A stretch of 64,000 bases of DNA from positions 1,028,670 through 1,092,669 of the forward strand of contig NZ_CM001857.1 in the NCBI RefSeq assembly GCF_000400505.1, read 5' to 3'. Position numbers and translations under genes: made by a program. A model generated the notes under the pieces. It saw nothing but the letters and a program-made list of their open reading frames with translations. It was not told the DNA's origin and did no database searches. This stretch comes from Musicola paradisiaca NCPPB 2511 (GTDB lineage Bacteria > Pseudomonadota > Gammaproteobacteria > Enterobacterales > Enterobacteriaceae). This document shows, piece by piece, positions 8,476 through 60,076 of the stretch. How positions within the stretch are numbered: position 1 is the stretch's first letter; every line of letters starts with the position of its first letter.

Positions 8476-10914
8476 TTACGCTGTTTCGTTTTGCGTCTGA
8501 CGTTGCGTCGGTTTACGGCTGGCCAGCCTGTCCGGCGCGAAATCATCCACATTGATGGTTCTTAGCCGACTGGATTCCGCTTTTTGAAGGATTTCAGCTT
8601 CTTCCAACGTGATTGTTCCCTCCGCCAGGCCGTGCTCCGCTAATCGATCCAACTGCATAAACGGCAAGCTGCGGCCAGCAGCCTGACACAGCCGTTGGTG
8701 GATGGGCTCTGCGGCCAGTACATCCTGCAACGCATGTTCGATCTGCGCTGCCGCGTGGCGGGCGCCGGATTTCAGATACAGACCTCTCCCCAGACGGCTA
8801 CGGGATACGGACGGCGTTTGCAGCAACCGCGCCAGCTGATGATCCAGCGCATCGGACGGCGGCGGGTTGACGGCGCCGAAGGGGAAGACCATCACGCGCA
8901 GCACGCGAGCAAGCAGCCGGTTGGGGTAGTTGGCCAGTAGTGCGTCGATGGCCTGGTCGGCCTGATGCAGCGCATCCTGCACGCCCCAACGTACCAGCGG
9001 TAAATCCGCACTCTGACGGCCTTCTTCGTCGTAGCGTTTGAGCGTAGCGGAGGCCAGGTACAGTTGGCTGAGAATATCGCCAAGCCGCGCCGACAGGCGT
9101 TCGCGGCGTTTCAGCCCGCCGCCGAGTACAGCCATGGAGACATCCGCCAACAGCGCCAGATTAGCGCTGAGCCGGTTCAGCCGTTGGTAATAACGGCGGG
9201 TGGCGTCGTTGACCGGGGACGCGCTGGTTCTGCCGTTGGTGACGCCAAGCCACAGGCTACGAAGCAAGCGGCTGGCGACATGGCCGAGATGCCCGAACAG
9301 CGCCTGGTCGAAATCCTTCAGGTTGTTTTCCTGCGCCGCCTGCATTTCCTTCAGAATATAAGGATGGCAGCGGATGGCGCCCTGCCCGAAGATAATCATG
9401 CTGCGAGTAAGAATATTGGCGCCCTCTACCGTAATCGCGATGGGGGCGCCCTGATAATTACGAGCAATGAAATTCGAGGGGCCAAGGCAGATGCCTTTGC
9501 CACCGGCGATGTCCATGGCGTCGATGATGGCGCGCTGACCCCGATGGGTGCAGTGGTATTTCACGATGGCGGACAGCACGGCGGGGCGTGCGCCTTGCAT
9601 GATCCCGGCGGTGATGAGCGTTGCGGCGGCGTCCATGACGTAGGCATTGCCCGCCATGCGAGCCAGCGGTTCCTCGATCCCTTCCATCTGGCCGATAGGC
9701 AGCCGGAACTGGCGGCGAATGCGGGCGTAGGCCCCGGTCGCCAGCGCGATGCCTTTCAGGCTGCCGGTCGAATTTGACGGCAGGGTGATCCCGCGCCCGA
9801 CCGACAGGCATTCCATCAACATGCGCCAGCCATGGCCTGCCATCGACGGCCCGCCGATGATGCAATCCAGCGGGACAAACAGGTTGTTGCCCTGGGTCGG
9901 GCCGTTCTGGAACGGCACATTGAGCGGAAAGTGACGGCGACCGATGCTGACGCCTTCCATGTGCGCTGGAATCAGCGCGCAGGTGATGCCGATATCATCT
10001 TTGTCCCCCAGCAGGTGGTCGGGATCATACAGACGGAACGCCAGCCCCAGTACGGTGGCGACCGGCGCCAGCGTGATGTAGCGTTTGTTCCAGGTTAGCC
10101 GCATTCCTAGCACTTGCTGGCCTTGCCACTGTCCATAACAGACTACGCCGAAATCCGGGATCGCGCCGGCATCGGAGCCGGCCTCCGGGCTGGTGAGCGC
10201 GAAACAGGGAATTTCATCGCCGCGCGCCAGCCGGGGTAGGTAGTGATCTTTCTGTTGCTCGGTTCCGTAGTGTTGCAACAGTTCGCCCGGCCCGAGCGAG
10301 TTCGGCACGCCGACGGTGATGGCAAGAATGCTGGATACGCTCGCCAGTTTTTGCAGCACCATCGCCTGGGCGTAGGCGGAAAATTCAAGGCCGCCATACT
10401 CTTTGCGGATGATCAGCGCGAAGAAGCGGTGCTGTTTCAGAAAATGCCAGAGCTCCGGCGGCAGGTCTGCCTGTTCATGGGTGATTTCAAAATCGTCGGC
10501 CATACGGCAGGCCTCTTCCACCGGCCCTTCCAGGAACGCCTGCTCCTCCAGCGTCAGCGTCGGGCGCGGGTAGGCGTGCAACTGACGCCAGTCCGGCGCG
10601 CCGCGAAACAATTCGCCTTCCCACCAGGTGGTGCCTGCGTCGATAGCTTCTTTCTCGGTGCTGGACATTGCGGGCATCGCGCGTCGGAACAGTTTCAGCG
10701 CCGTGGCGGAAAACAGCCGCTTGCGCAACGGCGGTAGGGTGAGCGGCAATAACAGAAGGATTAACGGCGCCAGCAACCAGTAAGACCAAACACCAAGCCA
10801 TGCCAGACCGCCGAACCAGGCGACCAGCAATATCCCACTGAGCCACAAAGGAACCTGATGGTAGAACAGAACAGCTGTAATGATGAGCAGAAGTAGAATA
10901 CTGACCGTAACCAT
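8476..10914 (-). CDS. fadE: Acyl-CoA dehydrogenase FadE
   Basis: This large acyl-CoA dehydrogenase (812 residues; the E. coli protein has 814) makes the 2-enoyl-CoA in fatty-acid beta-oxidation with FAD as cofactor. Two hydrophobic segments at about residues 3-50 suggest membrane association. The dehydrogenase core has [17 protein letters not shown] and [19 protein letters not shown], and a long C-terminal domain follows. It is divergent from gmhA. A FadR-like operator lies 36-52 bases upstream, so repression by FadR in the absence of long-chain acyl-CoA is likely. Confidence 0.95.
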
Positions 10915-52001: not shown

Positions 52002-52138
52002 GCAGGGGATGTTCAGAACCCTGTATTCAGAAAACCGTGTTCATCAGTGTATTAACTCAGACCTGATCTGGATCTGGCGCTCTTACGGCACAACAAAGTG
52101 GCCTAAACTGACTGGTGGTTTTGTGCCAGGAGTGGACT
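52002..52138. repeat. Direct repeat, left copy, flanking the AT-rich cluster
   Basis: About 135 bases, nearly 90% alike to 58799-58933 in the same orientation. Both contain attcagaaaaccgtgttcat, gatctggcgctcttacggca and gtggcctaaactgac. The copies bracket the 52.4-58.5 kb cluster. Confidence 0.85.
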
Positions 52139-52408: not shown

Positions 52409-53611
52409 TTAAATTAAAACTCGTTCTACTTTATCTTTTTTCTTTATTAAAAAAATCACGACCATAAATAAGATACCCGCACTGGTTGCTAAAAAGCATG
52501 CATTCAACCCTAAGTAATATGTAATAAATGAACCTACAGGCGGAGCTGAAAACATTGCAAAACCTATCGATGAAGAAATCATACTTGTTGATTTTGCTGT
52601 ATTATCTTTTGATGAAAAATATTGAACGTAAGTAGACAGTAGAATACTGTTTATTGAAACCGCCCCCCCCATCACTATCATGGCGAAATACATTATATAT
52701 TCCCTCGGGATATGAAATATATCCTCAGCATAAGAGGATGCAGGGATAAGAAAATATCCCAAACCTCTGAAAATCAAGCATGACAATATGTTTTTTATGT
52801 TTGCATTTAAAACTGATTTGCTTATAAAAAAACCGGCAACGACACCCGATAAGCCCGACAAACTCATGGCATATCCATAATCAGATTTTGTCAATCCCAT
52901 TTCATAGAATTTTAGTATTATCTGGCTATCTGATAAATAGAAAAATACAGATGAAATCAATGCCAGTATAAATGCAGGGGAAATATTTTTATCCATAATA
53001 ATCCCCCGATATTCATTAAAATAATTAGTTCTTGAGTTATTATTCACTTTAGGCTGACATACTAACTCATTAATAAATATCAAATATGATAAAAATGAAA
53101 CCAGATAGGATATTGATATAAAAATCAAGATATTTAATGGATCATGGTGTATTACATAAAATCCGATCAGAAGAGGTGATGACATTTTACATATTTGAGC
53201 AACCATTTGAAAGTAGCTCAAGTTTTTTCTTAAATTCACTGAACTATTCTTTAGGAGAATCATATTTGAAGGGTCAATCGTAAGTCTGAAACAGTTTTTT
53301 ATAATCACAATTAAAAGATAGAATAAAATATCAGGATACACGTATTGTAATAATGTAAGGAAAAAGCACACAATAGAAGATATAGATAAATATAATTTTG
53401 GTTTTGGGTTTTTATCAATCCAGGAAGAAACTATTGGCCCTAAGAAAAGTATTGAAAATGCATAAAATGATGTGTACAGAGCTAAATGTAAAGCAGTACC
53501 ATTCCATAAGAATGTGATTAATGTAAATGATATCGTTAATTCAAGATACAATGACAACGTGTTCCCAAAGGATGCGCATATCAACCGTGGTGTAGAATTT
53601 ATTGCCTCCAT
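52409..53611 (-). CDS. MFS transporter, probable exporter of the cluster product
   Basis: This AT-rich gene encodes 400 residues with about 11-12 hydrophobic helices and MFS organisation, including a short charged loop SSWIDKNPKPK after helix 2 and a long central loop around residue 200 (QPKVNNNSRTNYFNEYRG). I do not recognise a close family. It starts behind GGAGAG, 26 bases after the kinase-like gene, and is the last gene of the cluster. As the only membrane protein in the cluster it is the natural exporter and could also give self-protection. Inference from position. Confidence 0.75.
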   Translation of the reverse strand: MEAINSTPRLICASFGNTLSLYLELTISFTLITFLWNGTALHLALYTSFYAFSILFLGPIVSSWIDKNPKPKLYLSISSIVCFFLTLLQYVYPDILFYLLIVIIKNCFRLTIDPSNMILLKNSSVNLRKNLSYFQMVAQICKMSSPLLIGFYVIHHDPLNILIFISISYLVSFLSYLIFINELVCQPKVNNNSRTNYFNEYRGIIMDKNISPAFILALISSVFFYLSDSQIILKFYEMGLTKSDYGYAMSLSGLSGVVAGFFISKSVLNANIKNILSCLIFRGLGYFLIPASSYAEDIFHIPREYIMYFAMIVMGGAVSINSILLSTYVQYFSSKDNTAKSTSMISSSIGFAMFSAPPVGSFITYYLGLNACFLATSAGILFMVVIFLIKKKDKVERVLI

Positions 53612-53637
53612 AAAAATAGCTCTCCAATATTTTGTTA

Positions 53638-54309
53638 CTATTTTTGCTTTTCCAGATTTGATTTTATGATTTCTATTATATGCACTTTCAAATACTCTGG
53701 AGATAGATCAGTGGTGTTCATATGTATCCATTTATCATTAAAAAATTTAGAATATTGTTCTCTCACTAATTGTTGATAAGAAGAAAAATTTAAATTTTTA
53801 TCATTTTCAAGCATACCTGATTCGCTTGGCTTCAATGTTTCTTTCCTTGTTGCAGCAACTCGCGGGGTAACATCTAAGTATATAGTTAGATCTGGCTCTG
53901 TACTTAAATTAAACACTTCATTGGCAATATTTCTCATAATGTCATTTTTCAATGAAAAACGTGCTATATATTTATAGAACCATCCATCACTAATAATTAT
54001 CTTTCCTTCGTTTAAGGCTGGTTTTATTATGCCATAATCTAGAGCTGCAAACCATGATGATAGTAATAATAGCCAATGACTATCTCCTAACTCATCTAAT
54101 GGAGCCGATATATCGTAATCCCAAAGGATTTCACGTATCTTTCCCATATGGTACATTCCATATCCTGACTCGAGGACTGGGTGATTTTTGTCTAAGAATG
54201 TAGTATTAGGATATATTGTAACAATTGAATCATAAATATCTCTTGACACTGTCGATTTACCAGCGCCATCATTACCCTCAAATGCTATAAAAAAACCTTT
54301 ATTATTCAT
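53638..54309 (-). CDS. Thymidylate-kinase-like nucleoside/nucleotide kinase
   Basis: The 223-residue P-loop protein has Walker A at residues 12-20 (EGNDGAGKSTVSRDIY), a DGWFYKYIARFSL segment in place of the DR(Y/W) motif of thymidylate kinases, and a lid-like basic region ATRKETLKPSE. It probably phosphorylates a nucleotide or modified nucleoside. The housekeeping tmk would be elsewhere, so a dedicated role in this pathway is likely. Overlaps the radical SAM gene by 8 bases; AAGGAG ribosome site. Very AT-rich. Confidence 0.7.
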   Translation of the reverse strand: MNNKGFFIAFEGNDGAGKSTVSRDIYDSIVTIYPNTTFLDKNHPVLESGYGMYHMGKIREILWDYDISAPLDELGDSHWLLLLSSWFAALDYGIIKPALNEGKIIISDGWFYKYIARFSLKNDIMRNIANEVFNLSTEPDLTIYLDVTPRVAATRKETLKPSESGMLENDKNLNFSSYQQLVREQYSKFFNDKWIHMNTTDLSPEYLKVHIIEIIKSNLEKQK

Positions 54310-55444
54310 TTATTAATTCTCCTTTAAATGCTTCTGTGTCTAAAGAGTTTCGCCCGCTTCCTTCTATGAAAGGTTTGAAACCATATTTTTTATAGAGATG
54401 ACTCATTTCTAAACATACGCTATATATATAATCGAAAGATGGTCTTGGATAATTGGCGTATTTAGAACCATGATCTGGATGGAATACGGCAACGGCTGGA
54501 ACAACGCCCATTTCTGCGAAGAAATTAATCCCTTGAATGAGATCATCTAATGGTTCCAGTCCCGCAACAAAACCAGCATAAACATTACCTTTTCCTAGCT
54601 CGAGAACAGCTGCACTATATGCATCTAGCAATTTATCCCTGCCATAATCTTCAGATTTTCCTGGACATATTTCACTAAATTTTTTAGGGTTAAATATTTC
54701 AATGCTTATTGCCCATGAATTTACATAATTTTTTATTCCATTTATTTTTTCGAGATTCATTGGTGGCAGAGATATCAAATGACTATTAATATTATTTCGA
54801 AGACAATGTGGTTTTAATTTTAATAACAATTCTTTATGCATTTCAAAACCAACATCATAATTGCGTGTTGTTCCTCCATTAACAAGAATACGCTTTATTC
54901 TAGCTATATTGTGCAGTTCTAGCAAATCCATTACTTCCATTGCTTTTTCTGGCCGTATAGAGGTTTTATGATCGGAAACTGAATTCCTAGCTTCTCCTAA
55001 TGAGCAAAATTTACATTCTCTATCACTATTAAAATAATAACAATGTCCAGGCGAGAAAAATCCCAATGTTGAGTTACCATAAACAGTAGCATATTCTTCC
55101 ACTCTACTGCCATCCTTAAGTAAGATGCCATATATATCCGGTTTATCAGGGAATGTTATTTCTTGCAAATGGCCATCAATCGATATAAAAAACTCATTTT
55201 TATCAAAATCAAAGAAAATTCTATATTTTGAATTTTTATTATAATTACATGCAATGATGGTTCTGTCGTTTAAAAATATTTCTTGCGGTGTATTTTTCTC
55301 AGCAAAATCCAAAGAGCTATCCCCAGTCCCATATGCCCTTCGCTTAGGGATGAAAGAACCTTTTCTATTATATTCATGTAAAAATTCAGAGTCATAATTA
55401 ACCCCTTCGCTAAGAATTTTTAATTTCAATACTGTTGATTTCAT
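54302..55444 (-). CDS. Radical SAM enzyme with CX8CX2C cluster motif
   Basis: The 380-residue protein has three cysteines at 135, 144 and 147 (GHCYYFNSDRECKFCSLGEA) that should hold a [4Fe-4S] cluster and generate the 5'-deoxyadenosyl radical. The spacing CX8CX2C differs from the usual CX3CX2C. Barrel-like elements follow: VNGGTTRN (GGE-like position), SWAISIEIFNP and VYAGFVAGLEPLDDLI. The N-terminal 130 residues are beta-rich and may be an accessory domain. No SPASM cysteine cluster is seen at the C-terminus. Starts ATGA-overlapped with the phosphatase stop. Reaction unknown; could modify the peptide or a sugar/base. Confidence 0.82.
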   Translation of the reverse strand: MKSTVLKLKILSEGVNYDSEFLHEYNRKGSFIPKRRAYGTGDSSLDFAEKNTPQEIFLNDRTIIACNYNKNSKYRIFFDFDKNEFFISIDGHLQEITFPDKPDIYGILLKDGSRVEEYATVYGNSTLGFFSPGHCYYFNSDRECKFCSLGEARNSVSDHKTSIRPEKAMEVMDLLELHNIARIKRILVNGGTTRNYDVGFEMHKELLLKLKPHCLRNNINSHLISLPPMNLEKINGIKNYVNSWAISIEIFNPKKFSEICPGKSEDYGRDKLLDAYSAAVLELGKGNVYAGFVAGLEPLDDLIQGINFFAEMGVVPAVAVFHPDHGSKYANYPRPSFDYIYSVCLEMSHLYKKYGFKPFIEGSGRNSLDTEAFKGELINE

Positions 55445-56289
55445 ATATCTACCTCATTATATAAACGCAATATTTCTTGCTTTGTATTTTTACCGGATGA
55501 AGCAATTATTGATACATGTTTTTTAATAAGGGTTTCACTTGGGAACTGTAATTCGTACGTTGTCCCTGTTGAATACATCATCTCACCACCAGCCTCTATC
55601 AAAATTATTTTTGCGGCAGCAACGTCAATTCCTCTTTCATGCCCATGAATTGAGAGATCGATAAAAGCGTGTAATACACCGCTTGCAACCAAACATATAT
55701 CTAAACTAGAGCATGATGAGACTCGAATCTTTCCTGCTGATTCTACAATAGCTCTTTGTAGTGTTATTAACCTATCATCTTTAGCTCGGTGAAACGATAC
55801 TCTCATATCAGATAGTTTTTTTCTATCTTGCGTTTTTATCTTTCTACTTTCATAAATATTTTGTATGTAAGCACCTTCGCCTATAGCTGCTTTATATATT
55901 AGATCTCTAGAAATATCATACACCCATCCCATAATGTATTTATTGTTGTAATATACTGCTATTGATGTTGTAAATGAATGATATCCCATTATTAAATTAT
56001 GAGTCCCATCTATTGGATCTATGATAAAAATTAATTTTTTATAATCAACTTCACAATTGGGGTTTTCCTCTGATAAAACAAAACAATCGCATCCTTTATT
56101 ATCAAAATATTCTTTGATTAGTGTATCTATAAATATGTCTACAGATGTTTGACCTCCTTTGTATTGTTCCTGATAATCTAAATGCCATAAAGAAATTTTA
56201 GCTAACCACGCTTTTCTTATATCTTCTCTTAATCCACTAAATAAAAACTCCAAGTAATTAGGGAGTTCTTTTTTAAAAATAAACTTCAT
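55441..56289 (-). CDS. Inositol-monophosphatase-family phosphatase
   Basis: The 282-residue protein has the metal-binding elements of the family: LSEENPN, FIIDPIDGTHNLIMG near residue 92, and GIDVAAAKIILIEAGGEM near 222. Relatives dephosphorylate inositol phosphates, fructose 1,6-bisphosphate or 3'-phosphoadenosine nucleotides (CysQ). In this setting a nucleotide or sugar phosphate intermediate is likely. GGGAG ribosome site; overlaps the preceding gene by 17 bases. Confidence 0.8.
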   Translation of the reverse strand: MKFIFKKELPNYLEFLFSGLREDIRKAWLAKISLWHLDYQEQYKGGQTSVDIFIDTLIKEYFDNKGCDCFVLSEENPNCEVDYKKLIFIIDPIDGTHNLIMGYHSFTTSIAVYYNNKYIMGWVYDISRDLIYKAAIGEGAYIQNIYESRKIKTQDRKKLSDMRVSFHRAKDDRLITLQRAIVESAGKIRVSSCSSLDICLVASGVLHAFIDLSIHGHERGIDVAAAKIILIEAGGEMMYSTGTTYELQFPSETLIKKHVSIIASSGKNTKQEILRLYNEVDI

Positions 56290-56734
56290 CTTGACAATCT
56301 CCCATGTAAACTAGCTGTTTATGCCACTCTTTAGAATTAAGAAAAGGAATTGTTTTTCTTACATTGAAAAAACGCCCTGCATAAATTGAATAATCGGAAG
56401 ATGAAAATGCTTCCAGTGTTTTGGGGAAAAGAGACACTTTATGTATTTTTGTATTATGTCCTATTATGTTGGCAAGTTTATTATATGCTAATTGAATACT
56501 TCCTCCGGTATAAGCTTTATCTATAACAGCCCAAGTTTCACTCTTGTTTTTTCTGATTTCCGGGTAAATATCATCAAAAGACTTTGTTTTATATAGAAGA
56601 CCACTATCATTTTCTCTATGCACTTCACAGAAAAAAATATTAGAATCTTTAGTTGCTGCATGGTATGCCAATGCTATTGGCACACCACCAGAAACTATAA
56701 AGAGTTTGTTTTTTGCTATAGTGTTTATTGACTT
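56273..56734 (-). CDS. Phosphoribosyltransferase-like protein (start unclear)
   Basis: The readable part includes KLFIVSGGVPIALAYHAA (like the first strand and loop of type I phosphoribosyltransferases) and WAVIDKAYTGGSIQLAYNK, which matches the PRPP-binding loop except that K replaces the second acidic residue. About 150 residues. No ATG, TTG or well-placed GTG with a ribosome site precedes the fold; a GTG at 56683 would cut off the first strand. The frame continues upstream through one TGA (56735-56737) into the next gene. So this may be the C-terminal half of one 340-residue protein, made by readthrough or broken by mutation. Confidence 0.6.
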   Translation of the reverse strand, partial: KSINTIAKNKLFIVSGGVPIALAYHAATKDSNIFFCEVHRENDSGLLYKTKSFDDIYPEIRKNKSETWAVIDKAYTGGSIQLAYNKLANIIGHNTKIHKVSLFPKTLEAFSSSDYSIYAGRFFNVRKTIPFLNSKEWHKQLVYMGDCQDEVYF

Positions 56735-57298
56735 TCAGATTATATGATCCTGATATATTTTTTCTATATTCAGTGTTGGACATAATTCGAGGGAGGATAA
56801 ATAAATTTTCTTACTATAAAAATATCTAAAATCAGAATATAATTCTATTGTTTCTTTAGGAGCATCTGCAAGTGGATATGTTTTGCTTAATCCTCTGGCA
56901 TTATATGCATCATGATAGTGGTTAAGCGTTTCTATTAATGACTCACCTAATATTTTTGACTTTATCGCTACAATATCACTCTTTTTTACTCCGGAAATAG
57001 CCAATTCAGGATCAATGGCATATCCCTTTATAATTCCCTCTCTTTTCGTGTCACTTTCCAAAGATGAATGAATACTTTCCCAGCAATTTATAATATCGTC
57101 GCTAGAAAGAGAAGAGTAATGTTCTGATAAATTACTTAAATCAATGATCATTTCTTCAGCATTACGTAAAATAAAATTAACGCTTTGTAATTGACATCCA
57201 TTATCCACTAAATCAATATATTCTTTATAGTCATTTGTTTTTACCCCTTCTAATGTTCGCCAACAATGATTACGGCTTATTATTTTAATTTTATTCAT
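56735..57298 (-). CDS. Unknown cluster protein, in frame with the following PRT-like segment
   Basis: The 187-residue product begins MNKIKIISRNHCWRTLEGVK behind GAGGGG and ends at TGA in codon 188, after KIYQDHII. I recognise no family. Mostly helical by appearance, with a conserved-looking segment ETLNHYHDAYNARGLSKTYP. Because the downstream PRT-like frame is continuous apart from the TGA and lacks its own start, this may be the N-terminal domain of a single two-domain protein. Starts 19 bases after the nucleotidyltransferase gene. Confidence 0.6.
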   Translation of the reverse strand: MNKIKIISRNHCWRTLEGVKTNDYKEYIDLVDNGCQLQSVNFILRNAEEMIIDLSNLSEHYSSLSSDDIINCWESIHSSLESDTKREGIIKGYAIDPELAISGVKKSDIVAIKSKILGESLIETLNHYHDAYNARGLSKTYPLADAPKETIELYSDFRYFYSKKIYLSSLELCPTLNIEKIYQDHII

Positions 57299-57317
57299 AT
57301 ACCCCTCATGATAGTTG

Positions 57318-58355
57318 CTACCTTAATATTGCACCTATTTTAGAAAACTCATCGATATAAAATTTTGTTGTATTAGAATCAATGTCATTTTCACTTAAGT
57401 CAGATATAACTTTGTCTATATCTTTAGAATTATCAATAGACAACCAAACTTTATAGGCATCAGCTGTTATTTCACAAATAGCTGAGCTTTCTATTAATAC
57501 TAATTTAGATCTTTCGAATATTACTCTATACAATGGTTTTTTTATTATGGAGTTGTTATCTTTTATCTTTAAATGTCCTAAAAGCCTTTCTTGCCTTAAC
57601 TCTATTTCTACATCGCAACACTCTTTCCCTTGAATATAGTCAAGCGTTGCTTGCCATACTCTTCCAACTGCTTGGATATATTCAAGAGCGCTTGTATCAT
57701 TAATAACATTAATTTTAGAACAAACCAGCAGATAAGATTTAAAATATTCGTTATCTTTACCAAATTTTTTTATTGCGTTCTTTACACGCCACTTAATCAG
57801 GGTAGATGTACTGTTATGAAAAGCTAACATACAGTCTATTGATGCATGAAGCGTTCGCTCAGCGTTGAATGCTGCAGTAATATAGTCATTATCAATCATA
57901 TTCCCCATGCAATCAGAAAAACATTTCTCGCCGAACTTTTTCGCTTTATTTAATAAAAACTTACAAAGTTCATCTTTTGGGATACTATTTTTCAAAGAAA
58001 ATAATGCACTTTCGTGATGTATAGAAATCCCTGTTAGTAATCTATGCAATAGGTGCGACTCATACCAGCTTATTATCTCTTGACTATTAAGGTTGCTGAT
58101 TATCTCATTTATTTTGTCGATGCTTACAACAGTTAACTCACAGATCTTGTCATTAAATGGGATAAATATCTCAGTATTACATTGCTTATTCTCGGACGAA
58201 ACGATAGCATATACATCAAAATCAGATTTCGAAGTTGCGAACCCTTCCGTGATTGATCCTGAAAGATAACTAGTAATTAGGTTACTATCAGCTATTAAAG
58301 CTTTTTCTATAAGAGCTGCCAATTCGTTTTGAGTCTCTTTAGTCAGTATGCTCAT
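57318..58355 (-). CDS. Nucleotidyltransferase fused to a PqqD-like recognition domain
   Basis: The 345-residue protein has an N-terminal nucleotidyltransferase fold: SYLSGSITEGFATSKSDFDV, with the GS pair at 33-34 and the metal-binding SDFD at 44-47 (DxD). A helical middle region follows (residues about 120-260). The last 70 residues (LYRVIFERSKLVLIESSAIC, then EITADAYKVWLSID and a final helix FYIDEFSKIGAIL) have the pattern of PqqD-type winged helices, the RiPP recognition element that binds leader peptides. With the 32-residue peptide gene just upstream, I infer that this enzyme binds that peptide and adds a nucleotide to it or to an attached group. AGAGGTG site. Confidence 0.7.
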   Translation of the reverse strand: MSILTKETQNELAALIEKALIADSNLITSYLSGSITEGFATSKSDFDVYAIVSSENKQCNTEIFIPFNDKICELTVVSIDKINEIISNLNSQEIISWYESHLLHRLLTGISIHHESALFSLKNSIPKDELCKFLLNKAKKFGEKCFSDCMGNMIDNDYITAAFNAERTLHASIDCMLAFHNSTSTLIKWRVKNAIKKFGKDNEYFKSYLLVCSKINVINDTSALEYIQAVGRVWQATLDYIQGKECCDVEIELRQERLLGHLKIKDNNSIIKKPLYRVIFERSKLVLIESSAICEITADAYKVWLSIDNSKDIDKVISDLSENDIDSNTTKFYIDEFSKIGAILR

Positions 58356-58381
58356 GAAACACCTCTAGTTGACGCCGCTGA

Positions 58382-58406
58382 AAGCCGACAGCATAGCTGC
58401 CGGCTT
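58382..58406 (-). terminator. Hairpin between peptide gene and nucleotidyltransferase gene (attenuator)
   Basis: On the minus strand a 10-base stem (AAGCCGGCAG/CTGTCGGCTT, one G-U pair, 5-base loop) lies 16 bases after the peptide stop. The T tract is weak, so partial termination is likely: this would give more peptide mRNA than enzyme mRNA, as is common for RiPP operons. Confidence 0.55.
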
Positions 58407-58421
58407 CCTATATGTGAAAAA

Positions 58422-58520
58422 TTATTCACCATTACTCAATGAATCAGCTCTGCCATTGTTAAAGTCAGCGGATTCCTGCTTGTCGAGCATACGGAATGGA
58501 ACTAAGCATTCTTTGTTCAT
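58422..58520 (-). CDS. 32-residue candidate precursor peptide
   Basis: The frame starts at ATG 58520, six bases after a strong GGAGG (minus strand GGAGGTTTATATG), and ends TAA at 58422. The product begins MNKECLVPFRMLDKQES and ends with a polar part (ADFNNGRADSLSNGE) rich in Asn, Asp, Ser and Gly. It has one Cys (residue 5), one Arg at 10 and another at 24, and no membrane segment. Size, strong ribosome site, hairpin after the stop and place at the head of the operon fit a ribosomal peptide precursor. The N-terminal hydrophobic half would be a likely leader and the polar end a likely core, but this division is a guess. Confidence 0.65.
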   Translation of the reverse strand: MNKECLVPFRMLDKQESADFNNGRADSLSNGE

Positions 58521-58693: not shown

Positions 58694-59066
58694 GCCTAAA
58701 TAGCTTCTCATATTACCGCTCCACTTTAGCCAGGCCAGGTTGGTTGCCGGGAAACGGTGAAGCTGCATTCATAAATTGCGTTACCTGTTTCAGTAACTGC
58801 AGGGAGGTATTCAGAACCCGATATTCAGAAAACCGTGTTCATGAATGTATTAGCTCAGACCTGATTTGGATCTGGCGCTCTTACGGCACAAAAAGTGGCC
58901 TAAACTGACAGGTGGTTTTGTGCAAGGAGTGGATATATAACATATGGCTGAGGCAGAACCTAAATAACTTCGCACATTGATGCTTCACCTCTCATTGTGC
59001 AAGGCCCGTTCCTAACGGGGCACCACCTCCCACAAGTGTAGCGGTAATATGAGAAGCTATTTAGGC
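58694..59066. mobile_element. MITE-like element with 33-bp inverted ends
   Basis: The left end (58694-58726, beginning gcctaaatagcttctcatat) and the right end (59034-59066) are inverted repeats of 33 bases with one mismatch. The 373-base interior has no coding frame I can support and contains the right copy of the long direct repeat. Structure is that of a non-autonomous insertion element or the residue of an IS with its transposase lost. I could not define a target duplication. The family is not recognised. Confidence 0.7.
58799..58933. repeat. Direct repeat, right copy, flanking the AT-rich cluster
   Basis: Matches 52002-52138 in the same orientation with a handful of changes and a short deletion. 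It is inside the MITE-like element, whereas no matching inverted ends are seen around the left copy. A 14-base piece (cagaaaaccgtgtt) recurs at 60027-60040. Confidence 0.85.
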
Positions 59067-59140: not shown

Positions 59141-59883
59141 ATGGGCATTAATGATTTTATCTTTGGGAAGAAGAAAAAATGATGAAAATGAAAATATCAA
59201 GCATGCAGAAGAAATAACACAACTCCCCTCGCAATATATGAATATAGCAAGACAGAACAAAGATATAATTGAAGGGATGCAGTTCCATGCAACATGCCAA
59301 TTGCGGATCCCGATAGATGTATTTAAAAAAACACGGTGAATTTTTTAAAGGAGATAGTATCCCCCCAATATATGGTTCCCCAAGAGATGGTATTTGGTTG
59401 CCCAAATTACTAGATAGTACATTTGATTTTCTCGATAAAGGGGCTACCACAGCTTCTGATGCTGGGTCAGTAGATGCAGATGAGTATGTTGATTATGCGA
59501 TTAGTTTACTGAGTATTTTTGAATCAAACATGACTATTGACGATAAGATGGCTCAGGCATTAGTTTATGCGGGATGTAATGATTCTAAAAATAGAATCGA
59601 AAGCGGGATATTACGTTTCTATGGAGAAAAAAACATAGCTGATGTAATGTCTTTATACATTTCTAAACTAGATCGTTTTAAATTTTATTATGATAAACCA
59701 AATAAATTAACCATTGGTTAATGGTGTCAATAAAAAATAACCGATGCATTAGAATCCTCAGGGATAAATACGTTAAGGGCACTATCTGGGATGAGCGAGA
59801 ATGACTTAATTAATATTAACGGTGTCGGTAAAATTAGCGCAAAAAAAATAATAAGCAGCATTGGAGAATTAAGGGAAGTGTAG
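59141..59883 (+). pseudogene. Unknown AT-rich gene with C-terminal helix-hairpin-helix, decayed
   Basis: Three frames join into one protein if one A is removed from each of two A runs (59174-59179 and 59325-59331): MGINDFIFGKKK, then NDENENIKHAEEITQLPSQY to IPIDVFKK, then HGEFFKGDSIPPIYGSPRDG. After a long unknown domain the frame meets two in-frame TAA codons (59719, 59731). It then resumes with a helix-hairpin-helix (ALSGMSENDLININGVGKIS) and stops at 59883. The domain (containing VDYAISLLSIFESNMTIDDK) is not recognised. A DNA-related role is suggested only by the HhH motif. Low GC like the neighbouring cluster. Bases 59884-60076 hold nothing evident. Confidence 0.55.
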
Positions 59884-60076
59884 CTGTCTTTCTTAATGAT
59901 CACATTATACTGTATCCAAGTAGGATCAACCTCCGCTCCTCACTCAATCCAGGCCGTCAGATTTCATTGTGCGCGGCCAAAAAAACTGTCAGATCAAGTT
60001 TACGTGAATACACATAACGCCATTTGCAGAAAACCGTGTTAATAAAACCAGTTGCATAAAACCATGAGGTGTATCG

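What the first reader, a model, noticed from the sequence alone, without database searches (positions are those of the whole stretch)
52409..58520. AT-rich cluster that may make a peptide-nucleotide hybrid (RiPP-like) product
Seen: a 32-codon gene with a strong ribosome site, then seven tightly linked frames on the same strand: nucleotidyltransferase with PqqD-like end, unknown protein, phosphoribosyltransferase-like, IMPase-like, radical SAM, thymidylate-kinase-like, MFS. Most adjacent genes overlap by 4-17 bases. GC is far below the flanks. Known: RiPP loci pair a small peptide with an RRE-bearing enzyme and an exporter; kinases, phosphatases and phosphoribosyltransferases act on nucleotides and sugars. 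Inference: the pathway builds a modified nucleotide and joins it to a ribosomal peptide. No ThiF/MccB, YcaO, LanB/C or protease is present, so it does not match microcin C or other classes I know.
Basis: partly seen in the sequence, partly recalled or inferred. Interest (0 to 1): 0.92.

Follow-up and report, generated by a model that had tools for sequence, protein, structure and literature searches.

The report
Peptide cluster with leader-binding nucleotidyltransferase
A horizontally acquired operon encodes a tiny peptide and an unusual enzyme that probably grips that peptide and attaches a nucleotide to it; intact relatives exist in the insect-associated bacterium Photorhabdus, although the copy here has a stop codon inside one gene.

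Summary
An AT-rich minus-strand operon at 52409-58520 encodes a 32-aa peptide, a nucleotidyltransferase (NTase) and further enzymes. I found the operon, whole or decayed, at 8 Photorhabdus loci; 8 of 8 keep a 30-aa peptide upstream of the NTase, with coding-type substitutions and a stem-loop between the two genes. The predicted NTase is a kanamycin-nucleotidyltransferase fold plus a C-terminal domain (about 266-345) whose matches in solved structures are mostly RiPP recognition elements (RREs). Corrections: the 'unknown' and 'phosphoribosyltransferase' frames are one gene in intact relatives, interrupted here by an in-frame stop; the phosphoribosyltransferase label rests on one motif; 3 of 7 junctions overlap, not most. 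Best reading: an undescribed RiPP class in which an RRE-fused NTase nucleotidylates a short core (LM[NS]SSPN in Photorhabdus, RADSLSNGE here), exported by an MFS pump; it works like microcin C but with unrelated enzymes. RiPP clusters with a kinase, an NTP transferase and a discrete RRE are known (lasso/LPP); the fusion and gene set differ. No product has been seen; the nucleotide, acceptor residue and order of steps are inferred.

The parts
58422..58520 (-). 32-aa precursor peptide gene, MNKECLVPFRMLDKQESADFNNGRADSLSNGE
   Evidence: Matches 9 of 23 Photorhabdus-invariant columns (M1 left out), reached by 0 of 20000 shuffles.
58356..58421 (-). spacer with a 13-bp stem-loop between peptide gene and NTase gene
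   Evidence: MFE -25.5 kcal/mol, z -3.93 against dinucleotide shuffles. Not listed as a terminator-like site by the scan.
57318..58355 (-). nucleotidyltransferase, KNTase-like fold with C-terminal RRE-like domain (residues about 266-345)
   Evidence: Model pLDDT 82.9, pTM 0.81; Foldseek; VIA-align; GS-x10-D-x-D and E73 invariant in 9 of 9 rows.
56735..57298 (-). N-terminal part of the fused 'unknown/PRTase-like' gene, ending at an in-frame TGA (56735-56737)
   Evidence: homologous to the N-terminal half of single genes in L006, L015, L017.
56273..56734 (-). remaining, PRTase-like part of the same gene, same frame; first ATG/GTG/TTG start in the frame gives 56273-56683
   Evidence: motif VIDKAYTGGS; no Pfam family.
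55441..56289 (-). inositol-monophosphatase-family phosphatase
   Evidence: PF00459 E 5.7e-32, 111.7 bits against cut-off 27.
54302..55444 (-). variant radical SAM protein with C-x8-C-x2-C seen in the sequence
   Evidence: NF045502 249.6 bits against cut-off 125; sequence.
53638..54309 (-). thymidylate-kinase-like P-loop kinase
   Evidence: PF02223 51.8 bits against 27; below the dTMP kinase equivalog cut-off, 56.3 against 83.25.
52409..53611 (-). MFS transporter, putative exporter
   Evidence: PF07690 48.8 bits against 33.4.
52002..52136 (+). left copy of a flanking direct repeat
   Evidence: 91% identical to the right copy over 135 bases; 2 places in the genome.
58799..58933 (+). right copy of the flanking direct repeat, inside the next feature
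58694..59066 (.). transposon remnant with 33-nt inverted ends, IS630-like at its left end
   Evidence: Inverted repeat 97%; 58694-58800 is 92.5% identical to DNA under IS630-family transposase annotations in plasmids.

Best explanation
A ribosomal-peptide (RiPP) biosynthetic operon of an undescribed class. The RRE-like domain at the C-terminus of the NTase binds the leader half of the 30-32 aa precursor (FR.L and L...E...[YF].NG). The KNTase-like domain then transfers a nucleoside monophosphate from an NTP to the short core, most likely at conserved Ser27 or Asn30. The thymidylate-kinase-like, IMPase-family, radical SAM and PRTase-like proteins prepare the nucleotide donor or finish the attached group, and the MFS protein exports the product. 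The stem-loop after the peptide gene probably lets peptide be made in excess of the enzymes. Shown by computation: the conserved peptide gene, the RRE-type fold on an NTase that keeps its catalytic residues, the recurring gene set, the stem-loop, horizontal acquisition. Inferred: leader binding, nucleotide transfer to the peptide, acceptor residue, leader end at Gly23, order of tailoring, an antibiotic-like role. In this genome the operon may be impaired, since one gene has an in-frame stop.
For: Peptide gene upstream of the NTase at 8 of 8 Photorhabdus loci; dS exceeds dN in 28 of 28 peptide pairs; the window peptide beats 20000 of 20000 shuffles at the invariant columns. Residues 266-345 of the NTase model match RREs: TigE Z 10.0, lasso B1 9.2, TbiB1 9.0, PbtF 8.9, TruD 8.2. 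Residues 1-297 match kanamycin NTase, Z 10.6-11.4. Catalytic motif invariant in 9 of 9 rows. Stem-loop at the same position with unrelated sequence in the window, 8 Photorhabdus loci and L028.
Against: No product or activity is known. No PqqD/RRE sequence model fires, and two proteins not known to me as RiPP enzymes, Rv2067c and GdmN, match the same residues at Z 7.9-9.0. The PRTase label is unproven. No leader peptidase was recognised in the cluster. The window gene is interrupted, and 6 of 8 Photorhabdus operons are damaged.
Confidence: 0.5

Rival explanations
1. RiPP operon in which the NTase acts otherwise: it nucleotidylates only as an activation step, or works on a phospho-Ser placed by the kinase, ending in a glyco-, phospho- or cyclised peptide, or in a small molecule cut from the peptide scaffold.
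For: PsmN of pseudomycoidin, annotated as nucleotidyltransferase, is needed to add hexoses to phospho-Ser (PMC9266682, passages). Kinase plus NTP transferase is usual in paeninodin-like lasso and LPP clusters (PMC13381572, passages). NTase and kinase frames stay open in L018 and L023, where the genes between them are deleted.
Against: The kinase here is thymidylate-kinase-like, not HprK-like, and no glycosyltransferase family was listed for the 8 frames. Post-deletion codon changes are too few to show that NTase and kinase are still selected.
Confidence: 0.27
2. A small nucleoside pathway in which the NTase is a self-resistance enzyme or a nucleotide activator and the short ORF is a regulatory leader peptide.
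For: The NTase fold is that of aminoglycoside NTases, which are resistance enzymes. PRTase-like, kinase and phosphatase fit nucleoside chemistry. A short ORF followed by a stem-loop could also be an attenuator.
Against: Resistance enzymes need no RRE. The peptide's conserved columns and substitution pattern extend to its last residues, and no run of one amino acid is seen in it, as an attenuator peptide would usually have (recalled).
Confidence: 0.13
3. A decaying import without present function in this genome. This concerns the window copy and is compatible with the best explanation for intact relatives.
For: In-frame TGA; transposon-remnant border and flanking repeats; lesions in 6 of 8 Photorhabdus operons.
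Against: The other window frames are open over the length of their relatives, and the PRTase-like half could be made as a separate chain or by read-through.
Confidence: 0.5

Closest known systems
Lasso peptide and LPP clusters with HprK-like kinase and NTP transferase (paeninodin-like, pseudomycoidin PsmK/PsmN, LppK/LppN)
   Same: RiPP setting, leader-binding RRE, a kinase and an NTP transferase (PMC13381572 abstract, outline and passages; PMC9266682 passages).
   Different: There the RRE is a discrete protein (LPP) and the kinase HprK-like; here the RRE-like domain is fused to the NTase, the kinase is thymidylate-kinase-like, the exporter MFS, and no lasso protease or cyclase family is listed. 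LppN and PsmN sequences were not compared.
Microcin C (MccA-MccB)
   Same: Works like it if the reading is right: short ribosomal peptide plus nucleotide; in Photorhabdus a putative 7-residue core ending in Asn, as in MRTGNAN (PMC12250964 passages). An MFS exporter (MccC) is recalled.
   Different: Acting enzyme is a KNTase-fold protein with an RRE, not a ThiF-type MccB; there is a leader; the window core is 9 residues and ends in Glu.
Kanamycin nucleotidyltransferase / ANT(4') family
   Same: Predicted fold of residues 1-297 and the catalytic motif.
   Different: About 10% identity in the structural alignment; extra C-terminal RRE-like domain; sits beside a peptide gene.
RRE fusions of other RiPP enzymes (TigE, CteB, LynD, TruD)
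   Same: RRE-type domain joined to the modifying enzyme (names CteB and LynD recalled).
   Different: Those enzymes are other catalytic folds (recalled); none in the listing joins an RRE to an NTase.

Membership tests
RiPP (broad) | Short genetically encoded precursor next to the modifying enzymes | tested here: met
   9 of 9 loci counting the window; dS above dN in 28 of 28 pairs.
RiPP (broad) | Leader-recognition domain (RRE) | tested here: met
   By predicted fold only: residues 266-345, Z 8.2-10.0 to RREs; no sequence model hit; leader binding not tested.
RiPP (broad) | Mature product is a modified ribosomal peptide | not testable with these tools
   Needs mass spectrometry.
PqqD (PF05402) | Match to the Pfam family | tested here: not met
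   Not listed at E up to 10 for 9 NTases. The RRE-Finder paper says PF05402 retrieves RREs incompletely (passage).
Microcin C-like | MccB, a ThiF-type adenylyltransferase | tested here: not met
   No ThiF family listed for the 8 window frames.
Microcin C-like | Peptide ends in Asn | tested here: not met
   Window peptide ends in Glu; 8 of 8 Photorhabdus peptides end in Asn.
Lasso peptide | Leader protease (B2) and Asn-synthase-like cyclase (C) | tested here: not met
   Neither family listed for the 8 window frames.
ANT/KNTase fold | KNTase fold and GS...DxD motif | tested here: met
ANT(9) aminoglycoside NTase (NF012212) | Score above curated cut-off | tested here: not met
   15.1 bits against 340.
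Type I phosphoribosyltransferase | PRPP-binding loop and PRTase profile match | tested here: inconclusive
   Loop-like motif in 5 of 5 rows, one acidic residue replaced; Pfam 0 families at E 10; hhalign 0.1-0.4% to four E. coli PRTases, same as unrelated controls; model pLDDT 37.3.
Variant radical SAM (NF045502) | Score above curated cut-off | tested here: met
   249.6 against 125 bits.
Inositol monophosphatase family (PF00459) | Score above gathering cut-off | tested here: met
   111.7 against 27 bits.
dTMP kinase equivalog (TIGR00041) | Score above curated cut-off | tested here: not met
   56.3 against 83.25 bits; the broader PF02223 is met, 51.8 against 27.

The most novel reading that the evidence does not exclude
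A second natural route to peptide-nucleotide hybrids, unrelated to MccB: an RRE-guided KNTase-fold enzyme couples a custom-made nucleotide, built by the operon's PRTase-like, kinase, phosphatase and radical SAM enzymes, to a 7-9 residue core of a ribosomal peptide as a Trojan-horse antibiotic.
Probability: 0.33. Interest if true: 0.9.

Novelty: new variant of a known kind. Interest (0 to 1): 0.68.

Why it matters
An RRE-type domain fused to an aminoglycoside-NTase-like enzyme is a combination I did not find described in nine library searches (mostly seen as listings, and one search listed 20 of 39 papers), nor by term search in the main text of the RRE-Finder paper. If it nucleotidylates a leader-guided peptide it adds a new reaction and probably a new RiPP class, and means that peptide-nucleotide conjugates arose at least twice. 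The two Photorhabdus operons with every gene open (L006, L017) make this directly testable.

Tried and rejected
The single-protein scan of genome contigs with the radical SAM found no relative; the scan with the NTase alignment found 8 loci. Plasmid search with the radical SAM: 508 records, all under 60% identity; the rows shown were mostly MSMEG_0568-family genes. The best, on an Agrobacterium pusense plasmid (31%, L003), sits with another radical SAM, NUDIX and galE genes; no other window cluster protein matched L003 below E 0.04. NF045502 is in 89 of 398 phylum-sample genomes and rings in 2 of 14 controls. Of 5 contexts fetched, 4 showed the radical SAM in my ORF list and none another cluster protein (next best E 0.19); in L065 my longest-ORF choice missed the radical SAM itself. 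So this family does not point to a function.

Samples that gave only the window's own genome: NTase 1 of 394 in the order, NTase alignment 1 of 369 in the class, PRTase-like alignment 1 of 378 in the phylum. These are samples and need not have held Photorhabdus. No match: cluster DNA in E. coli genomes (megablast) and plasmids (blastn), NTase in phages, NTase alignment in viral contigs, fused PRTase-like protein in plasmids. NTase in plasmids: 3 weak partial matches.

The fused PRTase-like model failed (pLDDT 37.3) and was not searched. PDB sequence searches with it gave only WD-40 repeat chains, no single stretch credible. Profile comparison with E. coli hpt, gpt, apt and pyrE gave 0.1-0.4% probability, no better than dut, slmA, yicC, ybaN and dfp. 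PADLOC: only the kinase had clear hits, 28-30 bits to two models, taken as shared P-loop kinase similarity.

The 44-aa ORF before the Burkholderiales NTase (L028 9739-9873) has no significant similarity to the peptides. A double-glycine-type leader (LSxxELxxIxGG, recalled) fits the register L...E...[YF].NG only loosely and is kept as a hint. Selection on NTase and kinase after the deletion shared by L018 and L023: 9 synonymous/13 non-synonymous and 6/3 differing codons, too few to conclude. Promoter-like sites were fewer than in shuffles (29 against 36.9), and the window stem-loop is not among the 4 terminator-like sites. The HEPN-like match (Z 11.9) is to a helical bundle, for which the tool calls Z under about 13 weak. 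TruD appears in Foldseek at probability 0.96 but E 0.71.
Full report
The finding. The window lies at 1028670-1092669 of a 4.63 Mb single-contig genome, the only genome of its genus in the held set. From 52 to 60 kb GC is 0.29-0.39 per kb, against 0.58-0.61 in the 2 kb to the left and 0.53-0.60 in the 4 kb to the right. The cluster frames are on the minus strand. Pfam or NCBIfam place the IMPase-family phosphatase, thymidylate-kinase-like protein, MFS transporter and variant radical SAM protein above a curated cut-off; the NTase only below it (16.8 against 21 bits); the peptide and the PRTase-like frame have no hit at E 1, and the 'unknown' frame only sub-threshold ones.

Correction of the gene model. 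The 'unknown' and 'phosphoribosyltransferase' frames lie in one reading frame, parted by a TGA at 56735-56737. In L006, L015 and L017 the two are one gene of 340-344 codons. The same gene has an in-frame stop elsewhere in L016 and in L024. Intact copies therefore exist, and the window copy is broken, split or read through.

Relatives. In a sample of 392 family genomes the radical SAM finds 3 at E 1e-20 or better: the window's own, G232 and G360. Within the genus of G232 the NTase is in 6 of 12 genomes. A scan of named genomes gives P. thracensis, asymbiotica, akhurstii, heterorhabditis, namnaonensis, bodei and noenieputensis, plus a Burkholderiales MAG (L028, 32%). What remains at each is in the window's gene order. 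Only L006 and L017 have every gene open. L015 has two radical SAM pieces in different frames; L016 and L024 have stops; L007, L018 and L023 have deletions, and the end of the L007 NTase is altered.

The peptide is a gene. 8 of 8 Photorhabdus loci carry a 30-codon ORF (ATG or GTG start) upstream of the NTase, each behind a GGAG- or GAGG-type sequence. They read MNxIxxQAFRPLTxDExLNYDNGLM[NS]SSPN. dS exceeds dN in 28 of 28 pairs (NG86 on 30 codons, so single values are rough). The window's 32-aa peptide shares M1 N2 F9 R10 L12 E16 N22 G23 S27 N30 with all eight. M1 left out, it matches 9 of the 23 other Photorhabdus-invariant columns, which 0 of 20000 shuffles equalled. Its alignment scores to 5 of the 8 peptides beat 5000 of 5000 shuffles each. 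It is two residues longer and ends in Gly-Glu.

Stem-loop. Between peptide stop and NTase start the window has a 13-bp stem (-25.5 kcal/mol, z -3.93), the 8 Photorhabdus loci a 13-14-bp stem of unrelated AT-rich sequence, and L028 a stem followed by a T-run. Shared position without shared sequence argues for function, most simply partial termination or processing that leaves more peptide mRNA than enzyme mRNA. That is inference; the window stem is not listed as a terminator-like site.

The NTase. Nine aligned NTases gave a model with pLDDT 82.9 and pTM 0.81. Foldseek ranks ANT(4')/kanamycin NTases first (E 2.5e-6) and lists TruD at probability 0.96 but E 0.71. VIA-align, a second look at Foldseek's own list, resolves the parts: residues 1-297 to KNTase rows (Z 10.6-11.4), 129-245 to HEPN proteins (Z up to 11.9), and about 266-345 to RiPP enzymes: TigE 10.0, lasso B1 6jx3 9.2, TbiB1 9.0, PbtF RRE 8.9, ThcOx 8.7, a sactipeptide enzyme 8.6, a heterocyclase 8.4, TruD 8.2. 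Against: Rv2067c (9.0) and GdmN (7.9-8.1), not known to me as RiPP enzymes, match the same residues, and no PqqD sequence model fires. The RRE-Finder paper states that PF05402 retrieves RREs incompletely (passage). GS-x10-D-x-D and E73 are invariant in 9 of 9 rows, L028 included; their catalytic meaning is recalled.

The other enzymes. The PRTase-like half carries [VI]IDK.YTGGS in 5 of 5 rows, like a PRPP loop (recalled) with one acidic residue replaced. Pfam at E 10 gives nothing, hhalign to four E. coli PRTases is no better than controls, PDB sequences give nothing credible and the model failed. I treat the label as unproven. The kinase's best PDB relative is 2plr, a probable thymidylate kinase (E 2e-11). 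The radical SAM family is widespread (89 of 398 phylum-sample genomes), in other contexts in the few examined.

Mobility. A 135-base direct repeat, 91% identical and found at 2 places in the genome, brackets the cluster. The right copy lies inside a stretch with 33-nt inverted ends whose left end matches IS630-family DNA. With the GC drop this indicates horizontal acquisition. In Photorhabdus the operon has at least two neighbourhoods: L006 and L017 lie near an ORF I recognise as MltD-like, L007, L015 and L018 near ilvIH-like ORFs (names recalled).

Mechanism. I commit to an RRE-guided NTase that nucleotidylates the core of a leader-bearing peptide. The parts are shown by computation; the reaction is inferred from fold and pairing. 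In Photorhabdus the putative core after Gly23 is seven residues ending in Asn, a parallel to microcin C's MRTGNAN (PMC12250964, passages), but the enzyme is unrelated and the window core ends in Glu, so the parallel may be superficial. Known relatives in kind are lasso and LPP clusters, where an HprK-like kinase, an NTP transferase and a discrete RRE occur together (PMC13381572, abstract, outline and passages). PsmN, an annotated NTase there, is needed to add hexoses to phospho-Ser (PMC9266682, passages), a warning that annotation need not equal reaction.

Verdict. A genuine, rarely found, horizontally moving RiPP-type operon with an RRE-NTase fusion that I did not find described in the searches made.

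Noticed in passing
window 59151-59903: AT-rich stretch right of the IS630-like remnant with small ORFs (134 aa at 59317-59721 and others) that were not assigned to a family.
   Followed up: no
L028 836-11415: Burkholderiales MAG: a related NTase (352 aa) follows a 44-aa ORF (9739-9873) with AAGGAGATCAC before its ATG and a stem-loop with T-run after it; opposite-strand neighbours include transketolase halves, a cupin, an Asn synthase, a MobA-like NTP transferase and a class V aminotransferase. The 44-aa ORF is one of 15 short ORFs listed there.
   Followed up: partly
L019 597-9720: Streptomyces europaeiscabiei plasmid: a distant NTase gene beside genes annotated PqqD family, radical SAM, MFS, diiron oxygenase and asnB, perhaps another RiPP cluster.
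   Followed up: no
L063 5094-7727: An 877-codon ORF holding the variant radical SAM domain, next to ORFs that look like sulfate-assimilation genes (CysD/CysN-like, recalled); similar long ORFs recur in many genomes of one family in the sample.
   Followed up: no
L016, L024, L015, L007, L018, L023: 6 of 8 Photorhabdus operons carry different lesions (stops, a frameshift, deletions) while the peptide frame is open in all 8; L018 and L023 share one deletion.
   Followed up: partly
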